Assembly: GCA_001606155.1 (NCBI GenBank)
Contig: LODT01000020.1
Span: forward strand, 124,001 to 188,000
Source of the DNA: Tieghemostelium lacteum
Lineage: Eukaryota > Evosea > Eumycetozoa > Dictyosteliales > Raperosteliaceae
Direction of reading: 5' to 3'
DNA: 64,000 nucleotides
The position numbers were made by a program, and so were the translations under genes. The notes under the pieces are model-generated. The model ran no database searches, was not told the DNA's origin, and saw only the letters and a list, made by a program, of their open reading frames with translations. Each line of letters begins with the position of its first letter. Within the stretch, counting starts at the first letter, position 1. Of the stretch, positions 12,318 to 29,287 are shown one piece after another.

Positions 12318-13013
12318 TTATCCATTACTACCAACAATTCTATCTCTGACATCTGGATTAGATTTAGTTGGTTTAACAATAGAGAAAATAATAGTGATTA
12401 CAATGGCAATGACAATAAGTAGAATTAAACCTAAAATCAATTTATCGGTTGCCATCTTTCTTGCAAAAACTCTTATTTGTCTCTGTGCCAATTTTAGATT
12501 GGAATCTACTTCGTTCAGACCCTTGTCGATTCTGGTGAGCTGTTCATCTTGTACTTTCATTTCTTCGAGTATTTGAGTACCTATATTATTTGTATCTATG
12601 ACTTGTTTCAACGCATTTTCAGTTCTGGAGATATCTTCTTTTTGTATTTTTGTTGCTAAAGACATAGTATCTTGGTACTCTTTTTGCATGGTAGATTCAC
12701 CTTGTGGTGTACCATTACCTCCATTCTCTGACTGTTTTTCTGACCAATTCAAATCATTTTCTAGTTTTTTAATCTGTTCCTCCATTTCATTGGTCTTAGT
12801 TTGAAAAGGTAGATGGTCAGTTTTTGGTAGAGATCTAAACTCTACTCTATAACTATTTTTAACATCACGAGCTCTCTTTATTCTATTTTGTATTAAATCT
12901 ACTTTTGATCTATCGTATCCCTTTTTATTCTTTGTCAATTCTCTGATACTGTTACCAATCTCTACAACTAGACTATTAAACTCCTCTTCATATTCTGCCA
13001 ATGTATCACCCAT
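12318..13013 (-). CDS. Qb-SNARE, NPSN-like
   Basis: 231 aa, no intron. The first ~110 residues are helical (Vti1/NPSN-type N-terminal bundle). Residues about 130-195 form a coiled-coil SNARE motif (EDISRTENALKQVIDTNN through LNEVDSNLKLAQRQ). A single hydrophobic anchor (about 202-222, LILGLILLIVIAIVITIIF) is followed by a short luminal tail. ARKMATDKLI before the anchor and DVRDRI after it recall plant NPSN11-type SNAREs, which keep TDK(x)I and (N/D)IRD at the same places. It would drive membrane fusion at the plasma membrane, endosome or phagosome within a four-helix complex. A Vti1-type Qb-SNARE is the main alternative. Confidence 0.8.
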   Translation of the reverse strand: MGDTLAEYEEEFNSLVVEIGNSIRELTKNKKGYDRSKVDLIQNRIKRARDVKNSYRVEFRSLPKTDHLPFQTKTNEMEEQIKKLENDLNWSEKQSENGGNGTPQGESTMQKEYQDTMSLATKIQKEDISRTENALKQVIDTNNIGTQILEEMKVQDEQLTRIDKGLNEVDSNLKLAQRQIRVFARKMATDKLILGLILLIVIAIVITIIFSIVKPTKSNPDVRDRIVGSNG

Positions 13014-13427
13014 TCTTATCTACTTGTTTTATATACTTTCAATATCAATTTGAATGATGAAAGTTTTAAAAAATATGACCAACTGAAATTACAATGATAC
13101 CCACTATAATATCTGATCCTCTATTAAATTTTATACACTATGTTTATTTATATTAAATTAAAAAAGAACATGTGGTTATCTTTTTTTTTATATAAAATGT
13201 AAATAATTATTATACGCCAGGTGGTTCATTTCTTGAAAAAATAATCAAAGAAATCAATCTATGAAAAAACCTTCAAAAATTTAATTAAGAGATATTGAAA
13301 ACCATCTAGTTTTGTCACCCACAATTATTTTAAATACTAAATCATTCTTTTTCAGGTTGATATCAAAATGAAATGATTCCTCCTTTTTCAAATAAAAATT
13401 TTATTTAAAAATAGTATAAATGTACAC
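13014..13427. other. Intergenic, nothing recognised
   Basis: AT-rich sequence between the SNARE start and the 3' end of the first CLU/LRR gene. It should hold the SNARE promoter (minus strand) and the 3' UTR of the CLU/LRR gene. No coding, RNA or repeat signal was seen. Confidence 0.4.
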
Positions 13428-16400
13428 TTAAATTTTATAGGTATGTGGTTGAGTAAAAACATTTTTTCCTTCAAAAATTTTGAGATTAGATAAAGATCTA
13501 CTGAGGTTATCAATGGAATCCTTAGTGAAATCACAATTGGTAAGTGATAGATGTTCAAGAGTCGACACTTGATAATCAATGAGAGAAGTAGTGATTTTAT
13601 CAGATACCAAAGGTAAATGATCCAAAGATAATTTTTCAAATTTAACATTTTGCAGTAAGAGACATATGGAATTATCACTAATCTCTTTACTGTAGGAAAT
13701 GGAGAGATGTGTGAGTTTTTCAAAATGAGGCATAAGATTCAGTATGGTTATATCAGTGACGCACGGTGTCTTATTCAGTGTCATACATTCAATAGTTTTA
13801 AAATGGTGATAGAGGTTTTCAAATGTTGCATCACTAATGTATTTGTTGGCACTTATGGTTAAAGACTTTAGATCGTGACATTGTTCAAATATTATCTGAA
13901 AAAAACTGTGAAATATAGGGTCTTCAGGGTAATTGACATCTGATATACCTAGTGATTCTAGTTTACTCAAATGTCCAATGGCATCTGCAATCTCTTTGGT
14001 AAACGTCAACTTACGGATAGACAATGACCGCAATTGCAAAGAGTTCAAGAAAAAGTTTCGAATGACATAGTTGCCAAATAGAGATTCGGCATTCTGAAGA
14101 ATTTCAAAATTGTCAATTTGAATAACTTGCATTAGATATTTTGGTAGAACCTTGTGAATTATTGATTTTGGCGGTGTGTTACTCAACAGATAGTTGAGTG
14201 TTAGTAATTGATGTACTTTACGTTTCTGGAATGATTGTGGTTGTTTATCAATTACAGTCTCTGTGAGTTTAGTTGTAATTGGTAGTGATAGATATATATA
14301 CTCGTCTATACAATTAGGGTCTTGATCCAAGGCCAGTTCTAATTGTTCTCTACAGACTTTTAATTCGTTTATAAACTGGTCAAAATGGTTGGAATGGAAG
14401 AGATAGATAGTGGCTAAATGTAAATGATACAGTGCCATTAATCCAAGGATTGATGGTCGTATTTGTTCTTCTTTACTTATACTCCATCCATGTAGAATTA
14501 CACCAATAATGAGTAAACGTGTTACATTCATAGTATCATTAATAAGTGACACTTTAATATGGAAAGATACCAAGAGCTTCTGAATTACTTTTAGAGATGA
14601 TGGCATTTGTCTTACAGCTTCAAAAAGTACGTCTTTACTTCTGTTTATCCATCTCTCCAACTCCAAATGGTTGGTATCCTGAGATCTAGTTAATTTCTTG
14701 GTGTGATGTAATAAATGTGACCCATGTGCAAAATCAATGATATAAGGGTATTTTACAGTAGAACCTACCAATTCAATATCTTGTATACCTAGTATGTAAT
14801 CATTACTAGCCAAGAACTGGTTCATGGATGAATCTGCGATTTTTATATTCAACATTCTGTTCAATCTTAATAAAACCACTTTTAGATCGATACCTTGTCT
14901 AAGGTCATATTTTGGATTGGAGTCAGTTTCAGACAAACATCTAGGAAAGACTGTTAATGCAATTTGCTTGAAAGAACCTTTAGCGGTACTAGACCAAAAT
15001 GCAATTTGCTCAGGTTGTTGTTTGAGAATCAAAGAAAAGGCTTCGGCAATCAATAGTTTATAAGGTTCTTCTGATGGTCTTCTGGTGATATCCATAATAC
15101 GTCTGAGTTTATATCTAATGATTCTTTTCATTACTCTTGCAACAACCTCTGACATGCACAATTCTTTCAGTGATCGGATAGTTAATTGACTTGCAATTAC
15201 ACCAAGATATCTAGTATTGATACCAAGTGCTCTCATTGTATTTATAAGTTCTAAGACTTCAAATACCTTATGTGTACTAGGACTATAATCAATCTCCTCT
15301 GAGGCATTTAGTGTGTCAACAGCCAATTTAATCAATTCAGTGTGTAGTAGTTTAGTAGCTCTAACTACATCTCTATTCAATCCTTCTTCAAATAGAGATG
15401 TTTGCCATCCTGAAAATGCATCACTACTTAATGGTTCTTTAGATTTCTTTACCAATTCTGGTCGTAGCATTTGATAGAATATCTCTCTTCCAATAGTTTC
15501 TTTCTGGTTCTGAAATACCAATGGATATTCAGGTGGAAATATTCTTGCAAAATCAATCATATAATATCTTCCATCAGTTCCTTTATGTACTTCAATATCA
15601 CCAGGACCATATATAAATGTCTGAGATAATCCAACTGTATGTCCTCTAAGATTCAATATCTTTGATATTCTCTCCATCTCTTGTGAAATCAAAGGATCTG
15701 AATTATGTACTGTTTTACCAGCATCACAAGATCCATAAACAATGGTAGTCTTGTCAATTGGTAATTGTGATATTGCTAATAGTCTATATCCTCTATAATC
15801 AATAATAGCCATCAAAGGAAATCTAATTAAACCACAATTTGAAGCTTCCATAAAATGATTCAAACCTTTAATTTCATGATTTGCTGATTTCTGAGCAAAT
15901 CCATCAGCTCTCTTGTTATCACCATACATCCAAACACCTTCTCTAATCTCTGTATCTATTACAAATTTAAACATTATATCCTGTATTTTGAATTTCAAAC
16001 CACCAGCAACACCTCCAATATCCACAGGTTTAATCGTTTTCTTCTCTACAGGTAAATACAGCTCTGATATTATAATTTTACCAAATGTATCAGCACAATA
16101 CACAAAATCATTAGCAATCGTTGCTAATTTCTTTGATCTCTCTTCAGATTCATCCATATCTAATATCTGTTGAAACAGTTCATTCCAATGTGTAATCTCC
16201 TCTAAATTATCATTCTAGTATTAATATATGTATACCCCTATAGTCTATCTAAACCTAAACCTAAAACTAAAACTTACTAGATAAATCAGAATCTTCTATA
16301 TTCTTTAATCCACAAACGAATAAATCACTCCAAGAATTCTCTTGTTCTTCCTCTGATATAAAAGGTGCATTTCCATCAGTCTCTAATGAATAAATATTTC

Positions 16401-16566
16401 TAACATTCTCTGTTTCCGATTCGGAATTTGAAGTGGAATATACAATTGTATGAGGATTATATCCTGACGATGTACTGGCACCTGAACTCGTCGTATGCTC
16501 ACTACCAGTTGGGTTATAAGGATCTTGACTCTCTGGTGATGAGTAACTGATACCATATAGATCCAT
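13428..16566 (-). CDS. CLU-like domain/leucine-rich repeat protein A
   Basis: Two exons, 16566-16278 and 16201-13428, joined across a 76-bp intron (GTAAGT donor, phase 1); 1020 aa. Order: a Ser/Thr/Asn-rich disordered start (MDLYGISYSSPESQ), a WSDLF helix, a CLU-like domain (GGVAGGLKFKIQD, AIIDYRGYRLL, TTIVYGSCDAG, GTDGRYYMIDFARIFPPE), a helical middle, and C-terminal cysteine-containing leucine-rich repeats such as LEKLTHLSISYSKEISD. In the clustered-mitochondria protein CluA the CLU domain acts in mitochondrial distribution and mRNA binding; here it is fused to a ligand-binding-type repeat. Function unknown. Paralogues lie at 16737 and 23959. Confidence 0.8.
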
Positions 16567-16736
16567 TACTAATCAGTTTAGTTATTGTTATAAATATTGG
16601 ATTTAAAAAAAAAAAAAAAATAATTAAAATTTTTAAGTTTTTTTAATTTATAAAACTCAAAATTTTATAGTTCTTTTACAGCGAAAAAAAACCTGGGGTG
16701 ATAGATTATTAAATAGGAAGATTTTTGTAAATAAAT

Positions 16737-19700
16737 TTATTCAAATGCGGTAGTATTGAATTGTTCGATGGAAATTGTTTCTAGAGTCCTCAGATTGAAA
16801 ATTTTATAGGTATGGGGAGTAGAAATTTTAACACGATCGTAAATTTTGAGATTGGATAGTTTGTTGGCTATATTTTCAGTGGCATTAGTTGTGAAACCTA
16901 TGCAATTAGTTAGAGTTAAATCAGAGATGTTTGGGTGGCAGTCAATGATAACTTGACATATTTGATCAGTTATTAAGGTTAGGTGATCAACGTGAAGGGT
17001 TTCTAGAGTTTTGGAGATGGTACGTAAGAGAAGGGTCATGGCAGTGTCAGTATACTCTTTACTGTTGTTGAGTGAAAGTGATTGAAGATTGGTTAAATGT
17101 GGTGCAATATTGGTTAGAGTTACGTCAGTTAGAAGAGGAAGTTTACTGAGTTCTAGGTATTTGAGTCTTGAAAAATGGTGATGGAGACCTTCGAATGTAT
17201 GGTCATTTACCAGTTTGTTTGAGGTTATGGATAATGATGATATTAGTGGACAACCTTGGAAAATGGAGGAGAAGAATAGGTGGAGTGATGGATCGGTATC
17301 TTCAGGTTTATGTGAAGGAGGTGAGATATCAGAGACACTTAAAATTCTTAGATTGGAGAGTTTAGCAAGACTTTCTCTTACTAGAGAACTGATGGTAAGT
17401 TTTTGAATGGAAAGTGATTCTAATTGATTTTGGAAATTTTGGAAAAACTTGGAAATTTGTTTGCAGTCGAATAAGGATTCGGCATGAGGTAGAATCTCAA
17501 AATTATCTATTTGTTTGATTTGGTTGAGATACTTTTGAATGGGTTTTTGGAGGGATGGACTGGAGTTTAACATATATACAAGGGTGAGTAGGTTATGTAC
17601 TTTTCTCTTTTGATAGGATTCGTGTCGGACTGGAACTACACTATGTTGACTGGTGAACAAAGGTAGTGTTTCAAGTATATATTCATCTAGACAATTTGGA
17701 TCTTTCTCCAGAGCTACTTCTAAGAGTTTCTTAGCGTCTACCAACTCTTCTTTAAACTCTCTGTCAAGGTCAGAATGAAAGAGGTATATAGTAGCTAATT
17801 GTAAATGAATAAGACCAATAAGAGATGCTATATCAGGATGAGACCTCATCTCATTAGAAACACTCATTTGGTGCATTACGACACCTACTATAAGTATCCT
17901 AGTCGCTTTCATATGGTCATTGGTAATGGAGACCTTTACATGACTAGCTTGAAGAAGTTTTAATAAAACCTTAAAAGATCTAGGCATCTGTCTAATTGCT
18001 TCATTTAGAATCTCACCAGTATTTGAAATCCATCTATCAACTTCCAAAGGATTAGGAGTACTTGAAGATCTGAGTATATCTTTAGTATGCGTCAGAAGCT
18101 GTGACCCATGTGAGTAATCAACTATACAACTGTACTTTACAGTGGATCCTACATCAACTATATCCTGTATACCAAGAACATAGTCATTCGACTCTAAAAA
18201 CTGGTTAAGAGACGATTCGTTTATATTTATATTCAAAAACTTTCTTAGACGTAATATAACCACTTTTACATCTATACACTGTCTGAGATCATATTCAGCA
18301 TTCATATCAGATTGCGATAGACATCGTGGATACACTTGTAATGCTATGTGCTTAAAAGAACCTTTTTCCATACTCGACCAAAACTCTATTTGTTCAGGCT
18401 CCTGTTTGAGTATCATTGCAAAAACCTCATCAATCAAAACCTTATAAGGCTCTTCAGAAGGTCTTCTAGTGATATCCATTATTCTTCTAAGTTTAGATCT
18501 GATAATTCTTTTCCAAACTCTTCCAACAACTTCAGAAAGTAATAGCTCTCTAATTGACTTATTTGTAATCTGACTTGCCAAAGACCCTATATATCTATTA
18601 TTTATACCCATGGAATGAAATATATTTAAAATCTTCATAATTTCAAATACCTTGTGTCTACTAGGTGAATAATCAGTCTCTGGTTTCATATTAATATTAT
18701 GAATAATGGTAGGAATCATTTCATTATGCAATATATTAGTGGCTCTTACAACATCTCTATTCAATCCTTCTTCAAATAGAGATGTTTGCCATCCTGAAAA
18801 TGCATCACTACTCAAAGGAGTATCACATTTTGCCACTAATTCAGGTCGTAACATTTGATAGAATATCTCTCTTCCTATTGTATCTTTTTGGTTTTGATAA
18901 ACCAATGGATATTCAGGTGGAAATATTCTTGCAAAATCAATCATATAATATCTTCCATCAGTTCCTTTATGTACTTCAATATCACCAGGACCATATATAA
19001 ATGTCTGAGTTAATCCAACTGTATGTCCTCTAAGATTCAATATCTTTGATATTCTCTCCATCTCTTGTGAAATCAAAGGATCTGAATTATGTACTGTCTT
19101 ACCAGCATCACAAGATCCATAAACAATGGTAGTCTTGTCAATTGGTAATTGTGATATTGCTAATAATCTATATCCTCTATAATCAATAATAGCCATCAAA
19201 GGAAATCTTATCAAACCTCCATTTGAAATCTCCATAAAATGATTCAAACCTTTAATTTCATGATTTGCTGATTTCTGAGCAAATCCATCAGCTCTCTTGT
19301 TATCACCATACATCCAAACACCTTCTCTAATCTCTGTATCTATTACAAATTTAAAAATTATATCCTGTATTTTGAATTTCAAACCACCAGCAACACCTCC
19401 AATATTCACAGGTTTAATCGTCTTCTGCTCTAAAGGTGAATGTAATTCCGATATTATAATTTTACCAAAAGTATCAGCACAGTACACAAAATCATTAGCA
19501 ATCGTTGCTAATTTCTTTGATCTCTCATCAGATTCTTCTAAATCCAAAATCTTTTGAAAAAGTTCATTCCAATGCGTAATCTCTCTTGATAAATCTGTAT
19601 CTTCAATATTCTTTAGACCTCTAACAAAAAGGTCACTCCAAGCCTCTTCCTGTTCTTCCTGAGTTGTAAAATGAACATTTCCGTCATGTTCAAGTGAATA

Positions 19701-19865
19701 AATGTTATTTAATTTACGTTCAGATTCAGAATTGGAAGAATATACAACTGCATTAGGATTATAAGATGATGAACCTGAACTACCTGAACTCGTCGATTTT
19801 TCACTACCTGAAGGATGATATGGATCAACTTCCTGTGATGTGTATCCTACACCATATGGATCCAT
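16737..19865 (-). CDS. CLU-like domain/leucine-rich repeat protein B (intronless)
   Basis: 1042 aa in a single exon. Disordered Ser-rich N-terminus about 1-55, WSDLF helix about 77-90, CLU-like domain about 150-375 (DYRGYRLL near 229, VYGSCDAG near 249, GTDGRYYMIDFARIFPPE near 301), helical region to about 760, leucine-rich repeats about 790-1010. A and C carry an intron immediately after the DSDLS/DSDLT codons; here the same place reads DTDLSREITHWNEL without interruption, so the intron was lost precisely or never gained. The C-terminal repeats differ from A and C far more than the CLU domain does. Its 3' end is 170 bp from the start of A, so the three are separately promoted. Confidence 0.8.
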   Translation of the reverse strand: MDPYGVGYTSQEVDPYHPSGSEKSTSSGSSGSSSYNPNAVVYSSNSESERKLNNIYSLEHDGNVHFTTQEEQEEAWSDLFVRGLKNIEDTDLSREITHWNELFQKILDLEESDERSKKLATIANDFVYCADTFGKIIISELHSPLEQKTIKPVNIGGVAGGLKFKIQDIIFKFVIDTEIREGVWMYGDNKRADGFAQKSANHEIKGLNHFMEISNGGLIRFPLMAIIDYRGYRLLAISQLPIDKTTIVYGSCDAGKTVHNSDPLISQEMERISKILNLRGHTVGLTQTFIYGPGDIEVHKGTDGRYYMIDFARIFPPEYPLVYQNQKDTIGREIFYQMLRPELVAKCDTPLSSDAFSGWQTSLFEEGLNRDVVRATNILHNEMIPTIIHNINMKPETDYSPSRHKVFEIMKILNIFHSMGINNRYIGSLASQITNKSIRELLLSEVVGRVWKRIIRSKLRRIMDITRRPSEEPYKVLIDEVFAMILKQEPEQIEFWSSMEKGSFKHIALQVYPRCLSQSDMNAEYDLRQCIDVKVVILRLRKFLNININESSLNQFLESNDYVLGIQDIVDVGSTVKYSCIVDYSHGSQLLTHTKDILRSSSTPNPLEVDRWISNTGEILNEAIRQMPRSFKVLLKLLQASHVKVSITNDHMKATRILIVGVVMHQMSVSNEMRSHPDIASLIGLIHLQLATIYLFHSDLDREFKEELVDAKKLLEVALEKDPNCLDEYILETLPLFTSQHSVVPVRHESYQKRKVHNLLTLVYMLNSSPSLQKPIQKYLNQIKQIDNFEILPHAESLFDCKQISKFFQNFQNQLESLSIQKLTISSLVRESLAKLSNLRILSVSDISPPSHKPEDTDPSLHLFFSSIFQGCPLISSLSITSNKLVNDHTFEGLHHHFSRLKYLELSKLPLLTDVTLTNIAPHLTNLQSLSLNNSKEYTDTAMTLLLRTISKTLETLHVDHLTLITDQICQVIIDCHPNISDLTLTNCIGFTTNATENIANKLSNLKIYDRVKISTPHTYKIFNLRTLETISIEQFNTTAFE

Positions 19866-20499
19866 TTTTTGTAAATTTTATGTTATAATTTGTTGTTTTA
19901 CAATTTTACACTTAACTGTGTGAGTGTGTGTTATATATTAAAATGTAGATGTTAACAGATTGAAACAATAAATTAAAAAAAAATTAAAAAATTTTTAAAA
20001 AAGGTGTCTTTTCAAATTTTCAATAAAAAATAATCATTATGTCCTCATCTAAACTTAAAAATTCACTTTCAGTATTTGGAGCTAATCTATATTTTTAAAT
20101 AAAAAAAAAAAAAATATATTGTGAGAAATCATTAATCTTTTAAATTAATTATTACTATATCCAATTTCCTTTCCACACTCCCACATTTTGAAACTTTACA
20201 ATCTAGATATTTTTTTTAAAATATGTAGTTGTGTAAAAGGTGAAATATAGGGGTTAATATGGATATTTCCACAATGATATTTTAAAAAATAAAAAAGTTT
20301 TTATAACAATGAATATCATTGTACTATCTAAAGAAACAATTGATAACAACTTACATTGACCCCCATCCCCCATATTATTATGATGATGCTTCCCGATATA
20401 AAACATAACTATTTAAAGCATTTTCAAATAAAATCAATTCATTATCATAAAATTATTTATTTATTTATTCTAAAAATAGAAATATTCTAGAAACGGGAA
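19866..20499. other. Divergent promoter region between CLU/LRR B and the permease
   Basis: AT-rich. Near the permease side is a GC-rich patch, ACCCCCATCCCCCATA (about 20358-20373), the only such patch in the stretch. A TATA-like GATATAAAACATA follows at about 20394-20406, roughly 95 bp before the permease ATG. C/G-rich boxes are known binding sites of developmental factors such as GBF in D. discoideum; whether this is one is inference. No coding signal was seen. Confidence 0.45.
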
Positions 20500-22068
20500 A
20501 TGACAAGATGTACTCTTGCAAATAGTTACCAAAATTTCCTCAGATTGTGTGGTGTAATTTGGAAATTAGTGGTAAATTATTTCCCCAAATACACACTAAA
20601 TCCTCAAAGTGACCCTCAAAGTGTTGTAGGTCCCACTGAAAGACTACCAATATCATCAACAACTGGTATTGCTCTACAACATGTTTTAGCAATGTTTGGT
20701 AGTACTGTAGTAGGCCCACTTCTCATGGGGTTCAGTCCTAACACTGCCTTGTTATTCTCAGGTATTGGAACTCTTATATTCTATGTATGCACAGGAGGTA
20801 AAGTACCTTCCTATGTAGGTTCCTCATTTGCCTTTATAGGAGTTGTGAATTCTGCAACTGGGTTTGTGTATGTCCCAGGTGGTCCAGGGAACCAACATAT
20901 AGGTCTGGCAAGTGGAGGTATACTCATATGCGGTGTATGCTACCTTGCAATCGCCATTGTTGTGATGCTTGTAGGATCTCGTTGGCTAGAGGTCCTTATG
21001 CCTCCTGTTGTAACTGGAGCTGTTGTAATTACAATAGGACTTAGTCTTTCAGGATCCGCAATCATACAAGCATCAACAACAGGTTTTGATGCATGGATGG
21101 CACTACTAACCGTTGTTATAGTATGTTTAGTAACTACCTATGCTCCAGGTCCTCTAAGAAGACTTCCAGTCCTAATCGGAGGTCTAACATCATACCTTGT
21201 ATACTTATTCTTTGGACTTGGTGGTATAGGTCCAGGTATAGATTTCTCACTTCTTAGTAATTCTAAATGGATTGGAATACCCCCAACTGCCAGACCTGTC
21301 TTTGACGGTTCTGCAATTACCTTGATAGCACCTGTTGCCATCATCCTAGCAGCTGAGAATATCGGACATATAAAAGCAGTAGGTGCTATGACTGAAAGTA
21401 GTTTAGATAAGTTTCTAGGTAGAGCATTTCTCGGTGACTCTCTAGCAACCATTCTTGCAGCTTCTTTTGGTAGTATAGGTACCACAACCTATGCTGAGAA
21501 CATAGGTGTAATGAGTATCACTAGAATATTCTCAACATTGACATTTGTAATTGCAGCTTTTGTTGCTATTATTTTAGGTATTCTACCAATTTTCGGAGCA
21601 TTTATTCAAACTATACCACCAGGTGTTTTTGGTGGTTTGTCAGTGGTTCTATTTGGTATTGTAGGTATAACAGGTATAAGAATGTGGATTGGAAATCAAA
21701 TTGATTTTCAAAAGTCACGTAATCTACTGACTGCTGGTGTTACCATTGTCGTTGGTATTGGTATGGCAGGTGGACATGTAGTCCAATGGGGTGTTGTTAA
21801 ATTTGATGGTATTGGGTGTGCAACTCTTACTGCTATTGTACTCTATCAACTGTTACGAGATGATTGGGGTGAGATGCTAACTAAACTCTGGAACAAAATA
21901 ACAAAAAAGAATACAACTTCTGATAAAATCTCTACAAATGATACCATTACACCTAATCCATTTGATGATAATACCAGTATTGAACCATTAGAAGTACCAT
22001 CAACTATAGTAGGTGATGAAAATAATCAAAATTCATCTTCTGTAGTATGTCTAGAAACCCATTTTTAA
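20500..22068 (+). CDS. Nucleobase:cation symporter-2 (NCS2), RutG/uracil-permease-like
   Basis: 522 aa, intronless, with 12-14 hydrophobic segments. A 40-residue cytoplasmic start leads to ERLPISSTTGIALQHVLAMF, GPLLMGFSPNTALLFSGIGT and GGKVPSYVGSSFAFIGVV. Later comes the signature LAAENIGHIKAVGAMT, where the Glu and the N.GH...AV stretch belong to the substrate site, then TTYAENIGVMSITRI. The C-terminal 60 residues are polar and probably cytosolic. These blocks follow bacterial RutG/UraA/PyrP pyrimidine permeases very closely, more so than eukaryotic ascorbate/purine NCS2 members. Likely role: uptake of uracil or related pyrimidines, plausibly from digested bacteria. Substrate is not proven by sequence. 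Confidence 0.9.
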   Translation: MTRCTLANSYQNFLRLCGVIWKLVVNYFPKYTLNPQSDPQSVVGPTERLPISSTTGIALQHVLAMFGSTVVGPLLMGFSPNTALLFSGIGTLIFYVCTGGKVPSYVGSSFAFIGVVNSATGFVYVPGGPGNQHIGLASGGILICGVCYLAIAIVVMLVGSRWLEVLMPPVVTGAVVITIGLSLSGSAIIQASTTGFDAWMALLTVVIVCLVTTYAPGPLRRLPVLIGGLTSYLVYLFFGLGGIGPGIDFSLLSNSKWIGIPPTARPVFDGSAITLIAPVAIILAAENIGHIKAVGAMTESSLDKFLGRAFLGDSLATILAASFGSIGTTTYAENIGVMSITRIFSTLTFVIAAFVAIILGILPIFGAFIQTIPPGVFGGLSVVLFGIVGITGIRMWIGNQIDFQKSRNLLTAGVTIVVGIGMAGGHVVQWGVVKFDGIGCATLTAIVLYQLLRDDWGEMLTKLWNKITKKNTTSDKISTNDTITPNPFDDNTSIEPLEVPSTIVGDENNQNSSSVVCLETHF

Positions 22069-22699
22069 AAATACAACTATCTGATTATACCTATAAATTT
22101 ACATAAAACTAACTAATCAAAAAAAAAAAATAAAACAATCAAAAGACATTTATTTTTTTTATAATCCATAATATTTATTGATCTCTTTACAGTAGATGTT
22201 TATCTTTATTTAATCAATGATCATCTTTGAATATACTCTTTTTGTCATTCATGTTTTATAAACTAACTTGATAATATATTTAATTATTTGTCAAGATTAC
22301 CAAAAGTGGGTGTTTATGAGACAATATATTTTTTTTATTTATTTCGTGAAAACCATGAAACCAAATACAAATAATATTAATAAAATAACTTCAGTCAATA
22401 AAATTATTATCTATTTGAAGATCTAACCTCTGGTGGATATAAAAAATAAAGATAAAATATAATTATATTATTCGTTAAAAAAAAGGTTCCTTTCTAAAAT
22501 ATTAAATTCTTTAAAATCGTTTTATATTATAAAGACAACTTGTAAATAATGGTTAAAGAATATTAAAAAAGTGATATTTTAATTTATTTATTATTTAATC
22601 ATAATAGTTGTTTAAAATATAAAAATAATGGGAATGGGATTAATTGAACCAATATGGAGTGTAATCAATTATTGTCGATTTAATCTAAATGTTGATGAT
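22069..22699. other. Intergenic between convergent genes
   Basis: Very AT-rich sequence between two 3' ends. It holds both 3' UTRs, with AATAAA-like signals, and runs of A and T. No gene, repeat or RNA signal was recognised. Confidence 0.4.
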
Positions 22700-23350
22700 T
22701 TAGAGTAAATGTACAGTGTTTGGTAATTGGATGTTATGGAATTTAGCATGAGCTAATTTGAAAACATTTGCAGTTTGACATTCAACTGGTAATTCAAATA
22801 ATTGTGGGTTTACTTTGTTGGTGTAATCAAAGTAGTTGGCAATTGCAAAACCATCAAGACCATTGTTAGCAGTGAGAGTTGAAACAACAGCACAATCTTC
22901 ACCATCATAGAGAGCTTGAACAGTGGTATCAGCTTCGGTATCAGTGAATTGAATGACATCGACTTTATATTTACCTAATCTGACTTTTGGTAATTGAGTA
23001 AAGTTGGTTGGTAAACTACTTGGTACTGGGTAAGACAATGGCATTTCAGAACATGTTCCATTTGATAAAACATATTGAGTGTTATTAGCACCAAAGGCAT
23101 AGAGTTGACCATAGTAGAGGTTACCACCATCAATAATCTCATAAGAAATTGACATTTGTTGATTCTTGTAATCAATTGCAATACCACAACTTTCAGTAAA
23201 AGATAATTGATATCCAGGTGCTACATTTACATTATTTGCAACCATACCAATCACAGCAGAGAATCCATTTTTTTCTTTTTTGTAACAATGTTTGGCACTG
23301 ACCATAGCAACAACTACGAACATACACATTAAAGTAGTTAAAAATCTCAT
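22700..23350 (-). CDS. Ependymin-like secreted glycoprotein
   Basis: 216 aa. Signal peptide about 1-19 (MRFLTTLMCMFVVVAMVSA). The mature part has five or six cysteines and several N-glycosylation sites (NNT, NGT, NFT). The middle runs GGNLYYGQLYAFGANNTQY, and the C-terminal third runs EDCAVVSTL, then ANYFDYTNKVNPQLFELPVEC. The spacing Cys-x-(P/V)V-S...NY(Y/F)...P..F..P..C matches the end of ependymin-related proteins, small secreted beta-proteins thought to bind lipids or calcium. Overall similarity is modest, so the family call is probable rather than certain. Start chosen at the signal peptide. Confidence 0.6.
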   Translation of the reverse strand: MRFLTTLMCMFVVVAMVSAKHCYKKEKNGFSAVIGMVANNVNVAPGYQLSFTESCGIAIDYKNQQMSISYEIIDGGNLYYGQLYAFGANNTQYVLSNGTCSEMPLSYPVPSSLPTNFTQLPKVRLGKYKVDVIQFTDTEADTTVQALYDGEDCAVVSTLTANNGLDGFAIANYFDYTNKVNPQLFELPVECQTANVFKLAHAKFHNIQLPNTVHLL

Positions 23351-23958
23351 TTTTTGATTATTGTTTATCTATAAATTATCGGAATAGATCGAATTAATTC
23401 TTATTATTATTATTATTTGTTATTCAATTGAATGATTTAAAAAGATAAAATTTTGAAGTATTTATAGTAATTTTTTTTACTTGAACATACCAATACATCA
23501 TAGTTCCTTTTACGTCATTAGTAAAAATACCAGGACACCAGGTCAATATTTTCACGTCATTTACAAAATTTTAAAAGATTTTTTTAGGTCCTTAATTTCC
23601 AAAACCAAAAACCTAAGACCAAAGGTTTTTTACCAGAGATAAAATTTAAAAATTTTCCCGAATCGATTTCGATTTCCATTAAATTCATTGTAACCAGTAA
23701 TAAAATTTTATTTTCGAAATTCTGGTACTAGAATAGATTCTTTTTCCTAAATTCCTAAAATACATTCATTGAAGAATACTCCCAGTTGTGTTTAAATAAA
23801 ATTAAAGGATTTGGTGTGAATCATGTTGAAAGTTCATTGGCATTTTATTATAAATGTGTGATACTTGATTGTAGTGATATTACATACAAATTCTATTAAA
23901 AGAAAAGAAAATAGCACTGGGTGTTAGTTATATATGTCTGGAAGTTTTAAGTGACTTT
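23351..23958. other. Intergenic, short hairpin only
   Basis: AT-rich region with the promoter of the ependymin-like gene and the 3' side of CLU/LRR C. The only structure noticed is an 8-bp inverted repeat, AAAAACCT (23607-23614) against AGGTTTTT (23623-23630), with an 8-base loop. No coding signal was found. Confidence 0.35.
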
Positions 23959-26900
23959 TTAATATATTGGAGTTACATGCTTATAGGTGTGAGGCTGCTT
24001 AAATGATGGTCTATCAAAGTGTTTTAGATTTGTTAGGTTGATTGCAATTTTATCTATAGTTTCTTTTGTGAAACCTGGACAGTTGGTGAGTACTAGCTTT
24101 TCTAAGGAGGTTTGGTATTCTACTAGATATTCTCCAACTTTATCGGTAAGACTAGAAAGGTTATCTAGGTTTAATTTAAGTAGTAATCTACAGGTTTTTA
24201 AAAGTACACCAACAGCATTATCTGTAAACTCTTTAGTGTTGGTAAGAGTAAGACTACTGAGATTGGATAGATGTGGTGCAAGTTTTAAGAGAGTTTCGTC
24301 AGTTACCATTGGAAGTTTACTGAGTTCCAAACAAGTTAGTTGTTGGAAATACTTGTGTAGACCTTCAAATGTTACATCACTTATAAACTTGTTACTGATA
24401 ATCGTCAGATTTTTTAGCTGTTTACAGTTATGGAAAATGTTAAGGAAGAATGAGTTAAAGGTTGGATCATCAGGGAACACAATTTCAGAGATACCTAGTG
24501 ATACTAACTGACTTAGATCGGAAAAGGTGTCAGTTGTCATTTGTGTTATAGTAGTCTTTCGGATGGAGAGTGCCCGCAGTCTATTTCTAAAGTGAAGGAA
24601 AAACTTTTGAAGGAATTTACAATTGAAGAAGGCTTCGGCATGTGGAAGAATCTCAAAGTTATCAATTTGGATAATCTGGTTGAGATATTTATCCATTGGT
24701 TTATGAATTATTGATTCCTTGTCAGTGTTGACTAGTAAATAGACTAGAGTGAGAAGTTGGTGTACTTTACGTTTCTGATAAGATTCCTGTTGTTTATCAA
24801 GTACTGATGCGACCAAGGTGCTAGACATTGGTATAGTGTGATTAATGTAATCGTCTAGGCAATTTGGGTCTTCTTTAAGAGCAATTTCCAATTGAGTTCT
24901 ACAAGTGTTTAATTCATTTTGGAAATCTTCATAGAGATTAGAGTGAAAGAGGTAAATGGTTGCTAAATGTAAGTGGCAGAGTGCTACTAATCCTAGAATA
25001 GATGCTTTGTTTTGTAGTTTTGGTTCTACATTCCATCCATGCATTGTTACTGCTATAATTAGAAGTCTGGTGGCTTTTAAAGGGTCACTGGTTACAGAAG
25101 CTTTAACGTGAAAGGTAGCAATAAAATTCAATATAACACTGTATACTGCTGGCATTTGTCTTACGGCTTCGTGTAGAACTATTTTAGAGTTGGTTACCCA
25201 TCTTTCAACTTCCAATGGATTGGAGTTTTGTGATTTTGTAATTTCTTTGGTGTGTTTCAGTAACTGAGAACCTTGTGTGAAATCAATTAGATATGGATAT
25301 TTAACTGTTGATCCTACTACTTCTATATCCTGTATACCAAGTATATAGTCATCCAGTGACAAGAATTGTCTGAATGAGGAATTGTAGAATTTAATATTCA
25401 TCATTTTAGATAATCTTAGAATAATCAGTTTTACATCTACACTCTGTCTGAGATCATATTTAGGATTCATATCAGATTCAGATAGACATCGAGGAAATAC
25501 CTGAAGTGCTATATATTTGAATGATCCTCTTTCCATACTGGACCAAAACTCAACTTGATCTGGGTCCTGTTTGAGCAATTGTTCACATACATCTGCAATT
25601 AATTCCTTGTATGGTTCTTCTGATGGTCTTCTAGTGATATCCATAATACGTCTGAGCTTAGATCTGATAATTCTTTTCCAAACTCTTGCAACTACATCAG
25701 ATAATACAAGTTCTTTAATTGACTTGTTTTTAGATTGACTAGCAATCACACCAAGATATCTGTAATTGATACCCATAGATCTTAAAATCAATATAATCTC
25801 ACAAGTCTCGTAGACCTTGTGAGTACTAGGTGAGAAGTCAATCTCTGGTTTGGCATTTATAACCTGTAATGCATAGTTTATCAATTCAGTATGAAGTTTC
25901 TTAGTTGCAACTACAACATCTCTATTTAAACCTTCTTCAAATAGTGATGTTTGCCATCCTGAAAATGCATCACTACTTAATGGTTCTTTAGATTTCTTTA
26001 CCAATTCTGGTCGTAGCATTTGATAGAATATCTCTCTTCCAATAGTTTCTTTCTGGTTCTGAAATACCAATGGATATTCAGGTGGAAATATTCTTGCAAA
26101 ATCAATCATATAATATCTTCCATCATAACCTTTATGTACTTCAATATCACCAGGACCATAAACAAAAGTTTGAGTTAATCCAACTGTGTGTCCTCTAAGA
26201 TTCAATATCTTTGCAACTCTTTCCATCTCCTTATTAATCAAAGGATCTGAATTATGTACTGTTTTACCAGCATCACAAGATCCATAAACAATGGTAGTCT
26301 TGTCAATTGGTAATTGTGATATTGCTAATAGTCTATATCCTCTATAATCAATAATAGCCATCAATGGAAATCTAATTAAACCACAATTTGAAATCTCCAT
26401 AAAATGATTCAAACCTTTAATTTCATGATTTGCTGATTTCTGAGCAAAACCATCAGCTCTCTTATCGTCACCATACATCCAAACACCTTCTCTAATCTCT
26501 GTATCTATTACAAATTTAAACATTATATCCTGTATTTTGAATTTCAAACCTCCAGCAACACCTCCAATATCCACAGGTTTAATCGTTTTCTTATCTACAG
26601 GTAAATACAGCTCTGATATTATAATTTTACCAAATGTATCAGCACAATACACAAAATCATTAGCAATCGTTGCTAACTTCTTTGACTTTTCCTCTGATTC
26701 CTCCATATCCAATATCTGTTGATACATTTCATTCCAATGTGCAATCTCCTCTAATACCCATTTCAAAATTAATATAAGTATATTTACGTTACTTCAATTT
26801 TCTAACTTTCTACCTACTTGTTAAATCAGAATCTTCTATATTCTTTAAACCACAAACAAATAAATCACTCCAAGAATTCTCTTGTTCAGCTGCTGAAACA

Positions 26901-27094
26901 AAATGACCATCATGATCTAAAGAGTAAATATTTTTTCCTGAATCGTGATCTTCACCCTCAATTGAAGAGGATGAGTACACAATTGCATTAGGGTTATAAG
27001 AGGAACTTGATGAAGCTGTAGATTTTTCACTTCCTGAAGGATTATAAAATTCGTTTTCAGGTGTAGAAATTCCGTATCCACCATAGGGATCCAT
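23959..27094 (-). CDS. CLU-like domain/leucine-rich repeat protein C
   Basis: Two exons, 27094-26818 and 26750-23959, across a 67-bp intron in exactly the position and phase of gene A; 1022 aa. The N-terminus MDPYGGYGISTPEN is Ser-rich and disordered, then WSDLF, a CLU-like domain (GGVAGGLKFKIQD, AIIDYRGYRLL, VYGSCDAG, DGRYYMIDFARIFPPE with a YDGR variant), a helical region, and leucine-rich repeats ending FDRPSFKQPHTYKH. Its CLU block is nearly identical to that of A even at silent sites, while the N-terminus and repeats are clearly different. Function unknown; the constant domain plus variable repeat layout suggests recognition of diverse partners. Confidence 0.8.
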
Positions 27095-28081
27095 TGTATT
27101 TGTATACTATAATAATATAATTTTAATTAGGTCCGAAGTGAACTTTATAAAATAAAAAAAAAAAAAAAAAAAAGATTCAGATTTGGACCCTAGAAGATTT
27201 ATTTAATTCTTTTATTTTAATTTATTTGAAAACGATTAATTAGTTCTAAAATGCCGAATTTTACCTCTTTTTCAATTATATTTTTAATTTATCAATCAAA
27301 TAAGTAGTAATTTAATATAAAAATTCCTAGAAGATTTTTAAGAGTGATTTCTTCATCTAAATCAAAAAATGCCAAGTCAATGTCCATTCGTAATTGGTAA
27401 TTACTTGATTAAACACTTGTCAACTCTTTAGAGGTTCGAAATCCATTCTCATTTTGAGGATAGTTAAATCTATTATACAATAGTTGTAATTATATATTTC
27501 ATAGGAATAATTTTACTTTAAATTAACTTTTGTTAGTGAATATTTCAATTTAATATATATTTAAAATAAAATTTTAATTACTTTAAATAGTGTGTTATTG
27601 GAGAGACATATTAATAAAATACTATTGCCAATTAATACTAAATAATATCTGAAAAAGTAAATTCTAAATTATACTTGTAAAAAACTAATCTAATTCAACA
27701 CCACTATAAAATTATAATTCAAAAAAACATCATAAAACCAAAATTTTCATAATTAAATACCACATTAGAATTTTTAAGTTGATTTATGTATAATGAGAAA
27801 TAAAAAATCTACCTGATATTAGATATTTGTTTTAATTTTAATACTATATTATCATCCATTGCAATAGCCCAGGTAGGTGTCAAATAATTTGCTTGGAAGG
27901 TATTTGATCCGATTAAACTATAAATTCATCCTTTTATAGAGTAAATTTATTTGCTGGGCCATGTATAAATAGTGTGTAATTTACACAATCCAGTTTCTAT
28001 TTATAAATAATGTATTTCATTTAACTCAATTTCGAAATTAATATTTAAGTAATTTTTTTAGTTTTTATTTTAATTTTTAGA
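27095..28081. other. Intergenic with one exon-like island
   Basis: About 1 kb of AT-rich sequence between divergently transcribed genes. A less AT-rich minus-strand island (about 27930-27812) reads IGSNTFQANYLTPTWAIAMD and on for about 12 more residues, flanked by a TATAG acceptor-like and a GTAGAT donor-like site. I could not connect it to other exons. The rest shows no signal. Confidence 0.3.
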
Positions 28082-29287
28082 ATGAAGTTGGAGAGTGTGA
28101 GTTCTAAAATTGAAATAGACTATGAATTAAATGTATTAGCAATTGGACCACTTTTTAAAAGTAAAGAGAAACATTTATTAGTTGGTACTACAGATGGTAC
28201 TATTAAAGTATATCTACACAATAAATTAGTAGAAGTATTAGAGACTAAAGGTAGTTCAATTCTGACATTGGAACTATGTGATAGTACAAACTTTGGTGAT
28301 ATTGATATCATATCTGGTGACTCACATGGAAATGTTGTAATATTTTCAAATCATCAGATATTGTATAGAGATACAATCAATGGTCCTATATCATCAATTA
28401 TTACGCATGTTACTTCAAGTAAGCCATTGTTGGGTGTTAATAATAAAAGGTTGAGGTATGGTACTAATTGTGATTTAACAGACAATGATTTTAATATAGT
28501 TGTAGGAGATAGATTGGGGCAGGTAACTAGTATAAAACCACACCAAAATGTACAATGGAAATTTAAAGTACCTACACTTTCACAGACATTAGATACTCTA
28601 AAGATGTCACAGTTAAAAGAAAATGAAAGTTTGGGTATATGTATGGTTATAACAGAACAAAAATCACAAACAGTAAAAGATATGGTATCTATAGTCAATT
28701 CAGTAGACCAATTCGATAACTCATTTAATTATATAATAATATCAGAGAATCACAATGTCATTCATTTGATTGACCAAGGTCGTAAGCTGGCTAGTATATC
28801 TCCACCCTCCCCTGTAAATACCATGTGTAAAGGTTACTTTGACAGTAGATACAAAAACAGCATTCAAGTATTACTAGGATGTGAAAATGGTTTCATTTAT
28901 ATACTTCATGATTTTAAATTGGATGTATATTGTCAAGTTGGTTATCCTATCACCATCTTAAAAACTCTATCTCTAACCAAACCTAACAAAAATACCACAA
29001 CGCCCACCCTTGATCATGTTATATGTACAGGTGACTTTAATTCACTAAAAATCTATTCGAATAGAAATGTAAGTTTAAAAAAAACCCATTCATAAAACCC
29101 ATTTTTAAAAAACTAACTTTGAAAAAAAAATATCTTTATTTCGGGAAAATAGTTAATTTGCGATCACATATTAGAGGATTGGGTCAGTACATTGGCAATT
29201 GGTGATATTGAAAACTCTGGAGAATCTCTAATTGTTATAGGAAAATTAAATAATACCATTGAGTTTCTAAAACCGGTAGAATACTGA
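28082..29287 (+). CDS. WD40/FG-GAP-like beta-propeller protein
   Basis: Two exons, 28082-29068 and 29153-29287, with an 84-bp GTAAGT intron read in phase 0; 373 aa. Short blade-like units recur: HLLVGTTDGTIKVYL, DIISGDSHGNVVIF, FNIVVGDRLGQVTSI, VLLGCENGFIYIL, and in exon 2 LAIGDIENSGESLIVIGKL. The (V/I)xGDxxGxVxxx pattern is that of a single seven-bladed propeller without clear WD dipeptides. ITFG2, the propeller subunit of the KICSTOR complex that restrains TORC1, has this design and is a possible match, but no diagnostic motif fixes it. No signal peptide, so probably cytosolic. Confidence 0.65.

What the first reader, a model, noticed from the sequence alone, without database searches (positions are those of the whole stretch)
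13428..27094. Array of three CLU-like domain + leucine-rich repeat proteins
Three ~1,020-1,040-aa genes share an unusual order: disordered Ser-rich start, WSDLF helix, CLU-like domain (DYRGYRLL, VYGSCDAG, GTDGRYYMIDFARIFPPE), helical middle, C-terminal LRRs. The CLU domain is known mostly from the mitochondrial-clustering protein CluA; pairing it with a variable recognition repeat resembles the layout of intracellular sensors (constant signalling domain plus diversifying LRRs). Seen: motifs, layout, tandem arrangement. Inferred: sensor-like role.
Basis: partly seen in the sequence, partly recalled or inferred. Interest (0 to 1): 0.75.

Follow-up and report, generated by a model that had tools for sequence, protein, structure and literature searches.

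The report
Amoeba CLU proteins with leucine-rich repeats
A social-amoeba genome carries a cluster of large proteins that join the conserved CLU domain to a faster-diverging leucine-rich-repeat arm; they look like one branch of an expanded family of adaptor proteins rather than proven immune-type sensors.

Summary
In detail: three genes (1020, 1042, 1022 aa) with a real CLU domain (Pfam E about 1e-62), the CLU-middle domain, a TPR-like helical region and F-box-type LRRs. They are part of 19 CLU loci in the genome: one CluA orthologue and 18 others, some with SH2 (CldA type), TPR or other ends. A fourth array member lies 38 kb beyond the third, outside the window, inverted. 'Constant CLU, variable LRR' is real but partly recombinational: silent sites are homogenised in the CLU block (86-95% identical codons among the three genes) and diverged elsewhere (48-51%). 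LRR concave-face positions are not significantly more variable than other polar LRR positions, so diversifying selection, the basis of 'sensor', is not supported by the paralogues. Best reading, inferred: an adaptor family in which a CLU-TPR core docks a shared partner and the LRR picks a client. An unexpected lead: the CLU model's weak fold matches are mostly kinase-like, and 18 of 18 non-CluA loci keep a lysine that CluA lacks; sequence profiles do not support kinship. Cross-species copy number could not be tested.

The parts
13428..16566 (-). g1, CLU-TPR-like-LRR gene, 1020 aa; exons 16566-16278 and 16201-13428 (intron 16277-16202, GT...AG)
   Evidence: ORF, sequence, gene model
15528..16187 (-). 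g1 CLU domain (PF13236)
   Evidence: Pfam E 1.9e-62
13470..14120 (-). g1 LRR region
   Evidence: aligned to the modelled LRR of g2
16737..19865 (-). g2, CLU-TPR-like-LRR gene, 1042 aa, single exon (the intron present in g1 and g3 is absent)
   Evidence: ORF, gene model
18912..19571 (-). g2 CLU domain (PF13236)
   Evidence: Pfam E 6.2e-62; AF2 models
17526..18770 (-). g2 helical middle: CLU-middle (PF12807) followed by TPR-like helices
   Evidence: Pfam E 8e-7; AF2; Foldseek match to T. gondii CGP
16836..17513 (-). g2 LRR region, F-box type
   Evidence: AF2; phmmer to FBXL2 E 3.2e-8; Foldseek
18816..19568 (-). block homogenised between paralogues (g2 residues about 100-350; g1 15432-16184; g3 25981-26733)
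   Evidence: silent-site analysis; coordinates
23959..27094 (-). g3, CLU-TPR-like-LRR gene, 1022 aa; exons 27094-26818 and 26750-23959 (intron 26817-26751)
   Evidence: ORF, sequence, gene model
26077..26736 (-). g3 CLU domain (PF13236)
   Evidence: Pfam E 4.3e-62
24013..24669 (-). g3 LRR region
   Evidence: aligned to the modelled LRR of g2

Best explanation
The genes belong to a family of CLU-based intracellular adaptor or scaffold proteins in this amoeba. The CLU, CLU-middle and TPR-like core is the shared part and most likely docks a constant partner or holds the protein in a complex. The C-terminal F-box-type LRR arm most likely binds a client protein specific to each paralogue. Other loci carry other modules behind the same core: SH2 (CldA type), TPR, and, across a presumed intron, LRR plus a ubiquitin-conjugating domain or TPR plus LRR plus villin headpiece. 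Shown here: domain content, family size, varied C-termini, homogenised CLU block. Inferred: docking by the core, client choice by the LRR, and any signalling output.
For: 19 CLU loci in the genome (24 matches merged by place) with different C-termini: CluA with CLU_N and TPR, CLU+SH2 in one frame, CLU followed by LRR and UQ_con (E 2.2e-28) and CLU followed by TPR, LRR and VHP. In D. discoideum the CLU+SH2 protein CldA binds the LRR+SH2 protein LrrB, and mutants of either under-express cinB and abcG10 (PMC3085826: abstract and passages). The first whole-chain structural match is T. gondii CGP (9ya0_EA, E 8.8e-9, 1004 columns; chain name), a core subunit of a ring complex with a Clu central domain and a TPR-like domain (PMC12819142, passages). 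The three window frames are open, and CLU is under purifying selection (dN/dS 0.08-0.23 over the 9 within-group pairs).
Against: No partner, location or phenotype is known to me for any CLU-LRR protein. TM-scores to CGP are low (0.34 and 0.27, rmsd 17.1), so at most the order of domains is matched, not their packing. The CldA null does not show the late defects of the LrrB null, so even that pair is not one tight unit. Adaptor is a broad word that fits most repeat proteins.
Confidence: 0.5

Rival explanations
1. Intracellular sensors: the LRRs recognise microbial or self ligands and diversify, and the constant CLU domain signals.
For: Layout of a constant core plus LRR; Foldseek also lists NOD2, NLRC4 and NLRP3; tandem array with LRRs at 41-48% identity against CLU at 89-94%; in h1-h3 concave positions differ in 0.433 of pairs against 0.342 for all other LRR positions (not tested for significance against that set).
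Against: The NLR matches come with F-box, SKP2 and RanGAP LRRs, so they reflect the LRR. Concave positions are not significantly more variable than other polar ones; LRR dN/dS about 0.3 in the two pairs with dS below 2; no STAND, TIR or CARD domain listed; CLU sameness is partly homogenisation.
Confidence: 0.15
2. Ubiquitin substrate receptors: the F-box-type LRR picks substrates and the CLU core recruits ubiquitination machinery.
For: The LRR is closest to FBXL2, FBXL17 and SKP2; at one CLU locus (L026) LRR and UQ_con share one open frame directly behind the CLU frame.
Against: No F-box listed at E up to 10 in 3 of 3 window proteins; UQ_con found at 1 of 19 loci (main open frames only); such LRRs also occur in non-ligases such as RanGAP.
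Confidence: 0.15
3. CluA-like mRNA or mitochondrial factors: paralogues of CluA that regulate mitochondrial protein synthesis or mitochondrial placement, with an LRR added.
For: They share CLU and PF12807 with CluA.
Against: CLU_N and Pfam TPRs are not listed in 3 of 3; a separate CluA orthologue exists (L009) on a very long branch away from the other 18 (its place is unsure for that reason).
Confidence: 0.1
4. Atypical kinase or other nucleotide-binding enzyme: CLU is a divergent protein-kinase-like fold and this branch is catalytic.
For: By title, 50 of 50 listed PDB rows for the CLU-only model are kinase-like (1229 had E up to 10) and 24 of 50 listed viral rows are named kinases (584 had E up to 10). 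Gly-rich GGxxGGxK(F/Y) in 17 of 19 loci (in an 18th it is split by a presumed intron), FKF-type Lys in 18 of 18 non-CluA loci, Glu in a following helix (16 of the 17 rows that reach it; the exception is CluA) and two Asp in 19 of 19 rows.
Against: Best PDB E 6.2e-3, query TM up to 0.33; no match at E 0.001 or better in either library; the first four viral rows are not named kinases. hhalign with small alignments of the genome's Pkinase, IPK and PIP5K gives probability under 1%, lower than an unrelated control region (8.7%). PDB is rich in kinases; no Asp at the usual catalytic-loop spacing (recalled motif); no residue-level superposition was available.
Confidence: 0.1

Closest known systems
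CluA / CLUH / Clueless (CLU_N-CLU-eIF3_p135-TPR)
   Same: CLU and CLU-middle domains
   Different: No CLU_N or Pfam TPR listed; F-box-type LRR at the end; Gly-rich loop, Lys and Glu conserved here but absent in this genome's CluA
CldA of Dictyostelium (CLU+SH2), partner of LrrB (LRR+SH2)
   Same: CLU core outside CluA, in a social amoeba; a CLU+SH2 gene is also in this genome (L017)
   Different: CldA type ends in SH2, the window genes end in LRR
Toxoplasma CGP and PCR10 (Clu central domain + TPR-like, preconoidal ring)
   Same: First whole-chain fold match and the same order of CLU and TPR-like parts
   Different: Much longer chains (4,956 and 2,322 aa); a ring component of apicomplexan parasites; no LRR is mentioned for them in the passages seen
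F-box/LRR proteins (FBXL2, FBXL17, SKP2)
   Same: LRR type
   Different: No F-box listed
NLR receptors (NOD2, NLRC4, NLRP3)
   Same: Constant core followed by C-terminal LRR
   Different: No NACHT or NB-ARC ATPase, no death-fold domain listed

Membership tests
CLU domain family (PF13236) | CLU domain above the curated cut-off | tested here: met
   209.8-211.5 bits against 24, 3 of 3
CluA orthologues | CLU_N (PF15044) at the N-terminus | tested here: not met
   Not listed at E up to 10 (g2 whole; g1 and g3 main exon only); present in L009 at E 7.3e-16
CluA orthologues | C-terminal TPR repeats | tested here: not met
   No Pfam TPR listed in 3 of 3; helical, TPR-like region in the AF2 model
CluA orthologues | Mitochondrial clustering when lost; mRNA binding | not testable with these tools
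   Needs experiment
NLR / STAND receptors | NACHT or NB-ARC ATPase | tested here: not met
   Not listed at E up to 10
NLR / STAND receptors | C-terminal LRR | tested here: met
NLR-like sensors | Diversifying selection on the LRR binding face | tested here: inconclusive
   No signal among paralogues: concave against other polar positions p = 0.86, 0.46 and 0.45; orthologues could not be tested
FBXL substrate receptors | F-box | tested here: not met
   Not listed at E up to 10
FBXL substrate receptors | F-box-type LRR | tested here: met
   phmmer of g2 E 3.2e-8; profile of A1 E 9.1e-29 (A1 also holds LRRs of other loci)
Protein-kinase-like fold | Kinase-like topology | tested here: inconclusive
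   Consistent but weak Foldseek matches; no sequence-profile support
Protein-kinase-like fold | Nucleotide binding or phosphotransfer | not testable with these tools
   Needs experiment

The most novel reading that the evidence does not exclude
The CLU domain is a divergent protein-kinase-like fold. This genome's CluA lacks the glycine loop, the lysine and the glutamate, while the other amoeba CLU proteins keep them, so CLU-LRR proteins would be nucleotide-binding atypical kinases or switches whose LRR arms choose clients. The CLU 'engine' is kept uniform across the cluster by gene conversion while the LRR arms drift apart.
Probability: 0.15. Interest if true: 0.85.

Novelty: new variant of a known kind. 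Interest (0 to 1): 0.5.

Why it matters
CLU proteins are best known as mitochondrial and mRNA regulators (CluA, CLUH, Clueless), and what the CLU domain itself does is unclear. Eighteen further CLU loci in one amoeba, with LRR, SH2, TPR and other ends, show the CLU core used as a general module. If the kinase-like fold is right, it gives the CLU domain a testable biochemical hypothesis; I saw none such among the papers listed. The homogenised-core pattern also warns that 'constant domain plus variable repeat' in tandem arrays can come partly from conversion and need not mean immune-type selection.

Tried and rejected
Internal repeat: profile comparison of CLU with the middle region gave E 0.0038 but probability 8.7%, resting on a DI...IDF stretch; the motif search found it in 10 of 19 loci, mainly this subgroup, so it was dropped.

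IPK kinship: only nine columns align to the genome's inositol-polyphosphate kinases, probability 0.9% (3 sequences); dropped as a family claim.

Hidden partial copies: a protein search of the genome with g2 gave 31 matches (44 of 46 candidates scored); 30 fall on the known CLU loci and 1 is an LRR-only match on C29, so no decayed array members were found.

A regular-expression count of LRR units finds only 2, 2 and 3 units in g1, g2 and g3; the model was used for them instead. NCBIfam gave nothing useful (0, 0 and 1 chance-level match). Paper searches that added nothing; PMC12262889 was searched for kinase, AlphaFold, Clu domain and TPR and gave only two reference-list passages.

NLR and inflammasome matches were not taken as kinship because F-box, RanGAP and other LRRs rank among them.

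Cross-species copy number, orthologue selection tests and expression could not be tested: no other dictyostelid genome is held, and look-ups in supplementary files are capped at zero (not tried).

Full report
What is there. The window is part of a 23.33 Mb, 43-contig genome. Its size fits Dictyostelium (now Tieghemostelium) lacteum, reported at 23.4 Mb in 54 contigs (PMC4931340, passages), but the species was not proved. Three minus-strand genes occupy the stated coordinates: g1 (1020 aa), g2 (1042 aa) and g3 (1022 aa). g1 and g3 have one intron just before the CLU domain; g2 lacks it cleanly, its frame running straight through. Splice sites rest on GT-AG and homology, not RNA.

Domains. CLU scores E 1.9e-62, 6.2e-62 and 4.3e-62, and PF12807 (CLU-middle, eIF3_p135) is above cut-off in 3 of 3. 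LRRs are below Pfam cut-off in all three, but g2 matches FBXL2 at E 3.2e-8. An AlphaFold2 model of g2 built on 20 sequences from this genome (mean pLDDT 79, pTM 0.74) gives a disordered start, CLU, a long helical region and a C-terminal LRR ladder; residues 315-337 at the end of CLU are below pLDDT 50. Of 984 PDB matches with E up to 10 (36 at E 0.001 or better; 50 listed), the first is T. gondii CGP over 1004 columns, followed mainly by F-box LRR proteins and NLRs. CGP and PCR10 'contain a Clu central domain and a TPR-like domain' and are in the core of the preconoidal P2 ring (PMC12819142, passages). With the profile of A1 both chains match (PCR10 E 1.6e-10, CGP E 7.4e-5) over a stretch that by position is about the CLU-middle region (inferred; that alignment was not printed). 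With the CLU-only profile no PDB chain matches at E up to 10.

Family. 24 CLU matches merge into 19 loci. One is a CluA orthologue with CLU_N, CLU, PF12807 and TPR (L009). One is CLU+SH2 in a single frame (L017). At L026 a CLU frame is followed, after one stop codon in the same reading frame, by a frame with LRR and a ubiquitin-conjugating domain; at L025 likewise by TPR, LRR and villin headpiece. That the stop lies in an intron and each is one gene is inference, helped at L025 by PF12807 lying in the second frame. LRRs are well supported in 10 of 19 loci (g1-g4, h1-h3, C11, C18:749k, C30:1290k), borderline in 1 (L026) and weak in 1 (L023); 5 show TPR or SH2 without a detected LRR (L009, L017, L018, L019, L020) and 2 show only CLU and PF12807 (L011, L022) (main open frames only). 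In a tree of the CLU region the four C17 genes group together (99/96), next to C30:1290k (94/92), with h1-h3 (100/99) as sister group. Five of 16 inner branches are open, five are starred, and CluA and C31 have very long branches (ten rows were roughly joined).

Constant block, variable arm. Amino-acid identity among g1-g4 is 89-94% in CLU, 55-66% in the N-terminus and 41-48% in the LRR. Against the unlinked h group it is 73% in CLU and 27% in the LRR (means of 12 pairs), so CLU really is more constrained. Silent sites tell a second story. dS in CLU is 0.13, 0.16 and 0.29 among g1-g3 and 0.41-0.45 with g4, while in the LRR it is saturated or 1.65 and above in 6 of 6 pairs. Among codons for the same amino acid, 86-95% are identical in residues 140-350 for g1-g3 pairs and 48-51% in residues 360-1020 (Fisher p 4e-16 to 2e-30); g4 pairs give 78-80% and 44-49%; unlinked g-h pairs give 55-64% and 41-51% (12 pairs, all higher in CLU, p 3e-5 to 0.057). 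So some silent constraint or bias exists in CLU anyway. The longest run of shared silent sites beats shuffles for g1-g2 (p 0.014, residues 263-318), g1-g3 (p 0.003, 317-351) and h1-h2 (p 0.0008, 293-354); g2-g4 is marginal and lies outside CLU (p 0.05), and five pairs are not significant (g1-g4, g2-g3, g3-g4, h1-h3, h2-h3); no correction for nine tests was made. With all variable codons g1-g2 and g1-g3 reach p 0.0002, g2-g3 0.009 and g2-g4 0.04, the run of g2-g3 again lying outside CLU. I read this as gene conversion among linked copies in and around CLU, best shown for g1-g2, g1-g3 and h1-h2, not separately shown for g4. Since conversion needs sequence identity, protein constraint on CLU may itself keep the block convertible; it need not be selected for.

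Is the LRR diversifying? The 21 concave-face positions, placed by me on seven strands of the model, differ in 0.587 of g pairs against 0.646 for other polar LRR positions (p 0.86), 0.433 against 0.418 in h1-h3 (p 0.46) and 0.736 against 0.702 over all seven (p 0.45). The two LRR pairs with dS below 2 give dN/dS 0.33 and 0.29; the others are too saturated to trust. These are paralogue tests and cannot exclude positive selection between species or at a few sites.

Fold of CLU. A CLU-only model (pLDDT 78.5, pTM 0.77, 19 sequences) finds no PDB match at E 0.001, but by title all 50 listed rows (of 1229 with E up to 10) are kinases or kinase-like folds (protein kinases, OspG, APH, HipA; the last recalled as kinase-like), best E 6.2e-3, Foldseek probability 0.96. 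In the viral library (584 with E up to 10) 24 of 50 listed rows are named kinases, 14 have no name, 5 are uncharacterised and 7 are other; the first named kinase is rank 5. In the sequence, a glycine-rich GGxxGGxK(F/Y), an FKF-type lysine, a helix glutamate and two invariant aspartates follow in the kinase order; the kinase motifs are recalled and the equivalence is inference. The lysine is in 18 of 18 non-CluA loci; CluA has Ser there and Asp for the Glu. Against this, hhalign with small alignments of the genome's Pkinase (8 rows), IPK (3) and PIP5K (5) gives probability under 1%, while the unrelated middle region gives 8.7%, and PDB is full of kinases. I treat it as a lead. Two text searches showed no paper linking CLUH or the CLU domain with a kinase fold: the 20 rows listed of 313 have no CLUH or CLU domain at all, so lower rows were not seen, and the 2 rows are unrelated by title.

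Function. In D. discoideum, CldA (CLU+SH2) binds LrrB (LRR+SH2, 14-3-3 site); binding depends on the LrrB SH2 domain and rises with pervanadate, and cinB and abcG10 fall in both mutants, although the CldA null lacks the late defects of the LrrB null (PMC3085826, abstract and passages). In T. brucei FLAM3, a flagellum attachment zone protein, has an N-terminal CLU domain (PMC4541047, passages). With CGP this shows CLU proteins outside the CluA role in adaptor and structural settings. The CLU-LRR genes join in one chain the two module types that meet as separate proteins in CldA-LrrB. The adaptor model follows from this; no step of it was tested here.

Novelty. Text searches in the held library gave one paper with CLU domain, Dictyostelium and leucine-rich repeat and four with CLU domain and Dictyostelium. 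Of those four I saw abstract and passages of one, passages of one and the listing of two; none of what I saw describes CLU-LRR proteins. None of the ten places shown from the multicellularity-genes paper concerns CLU domains. Database annotations of other dictyostelids were not available. I rate it a new variant of a known kind.

Noticed in passing
window 16737-19865: g2 lacks, cleanly and in frame, the intron that g1, g3, the fourth C17 gene and the three h genes have just before CLU: a precise intron loss inside a tandem array, as expected from recombination with a cDNA.
   Followed up: partly
L026:1194-8807 (G000:C33): A CLU frame followed, after one in-frame stop (presumed intron), by LRRs and a ubiquitin-conjugating domain (UQ_con E 2.2e-28) and a possible zinc-finger end (Torus below cut-off).
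   Followed up: partly
L025:1628-7489 (G000:C18): A CLU frame followed, after one in-frame stop (presumed intron), by PF12807, TPR, many LRRs and a C-terminal villin headpiece (E 3.6e-10).
   Followed up: partly
L012 (G000:C17, from 189425, just past the window's right end): Fourth C17 member of the same CLU-LRR group, on the opposite strand, 38 kb beyond g3.
   Followed up: yes
window 28049-29095: Open frame with weak similarity to BBS7 and BBS2 beta-propellers (E 1.1e-5 and 8e-4, both below cut-off), odd in an amoeba group recalled to lack cilia; may be another propeller protein.
   Followed up: no
window 22700-23368: Ependymin-domain protein of the amoebozoan type (E 8.2e-37) lying between g2 and g3.
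   Followed up: no
window 20491-22068: Xanthine/uracil-type permease (E 6.9e-78) on the plus strand between array members g2 and g3.
   Followed up: no
window 12318-13019: Vti1-like v-SNARE (V-SNARE E 3.2e-7) next to g1.
   Followed up: no
L014 (G000:C4:468500-478499): Tandem pair h1-h2 shows conversion-like silent identity also outside CLU (residues about 400-600 and 850-1000), unlike the window cluster.
   Followed up: partly
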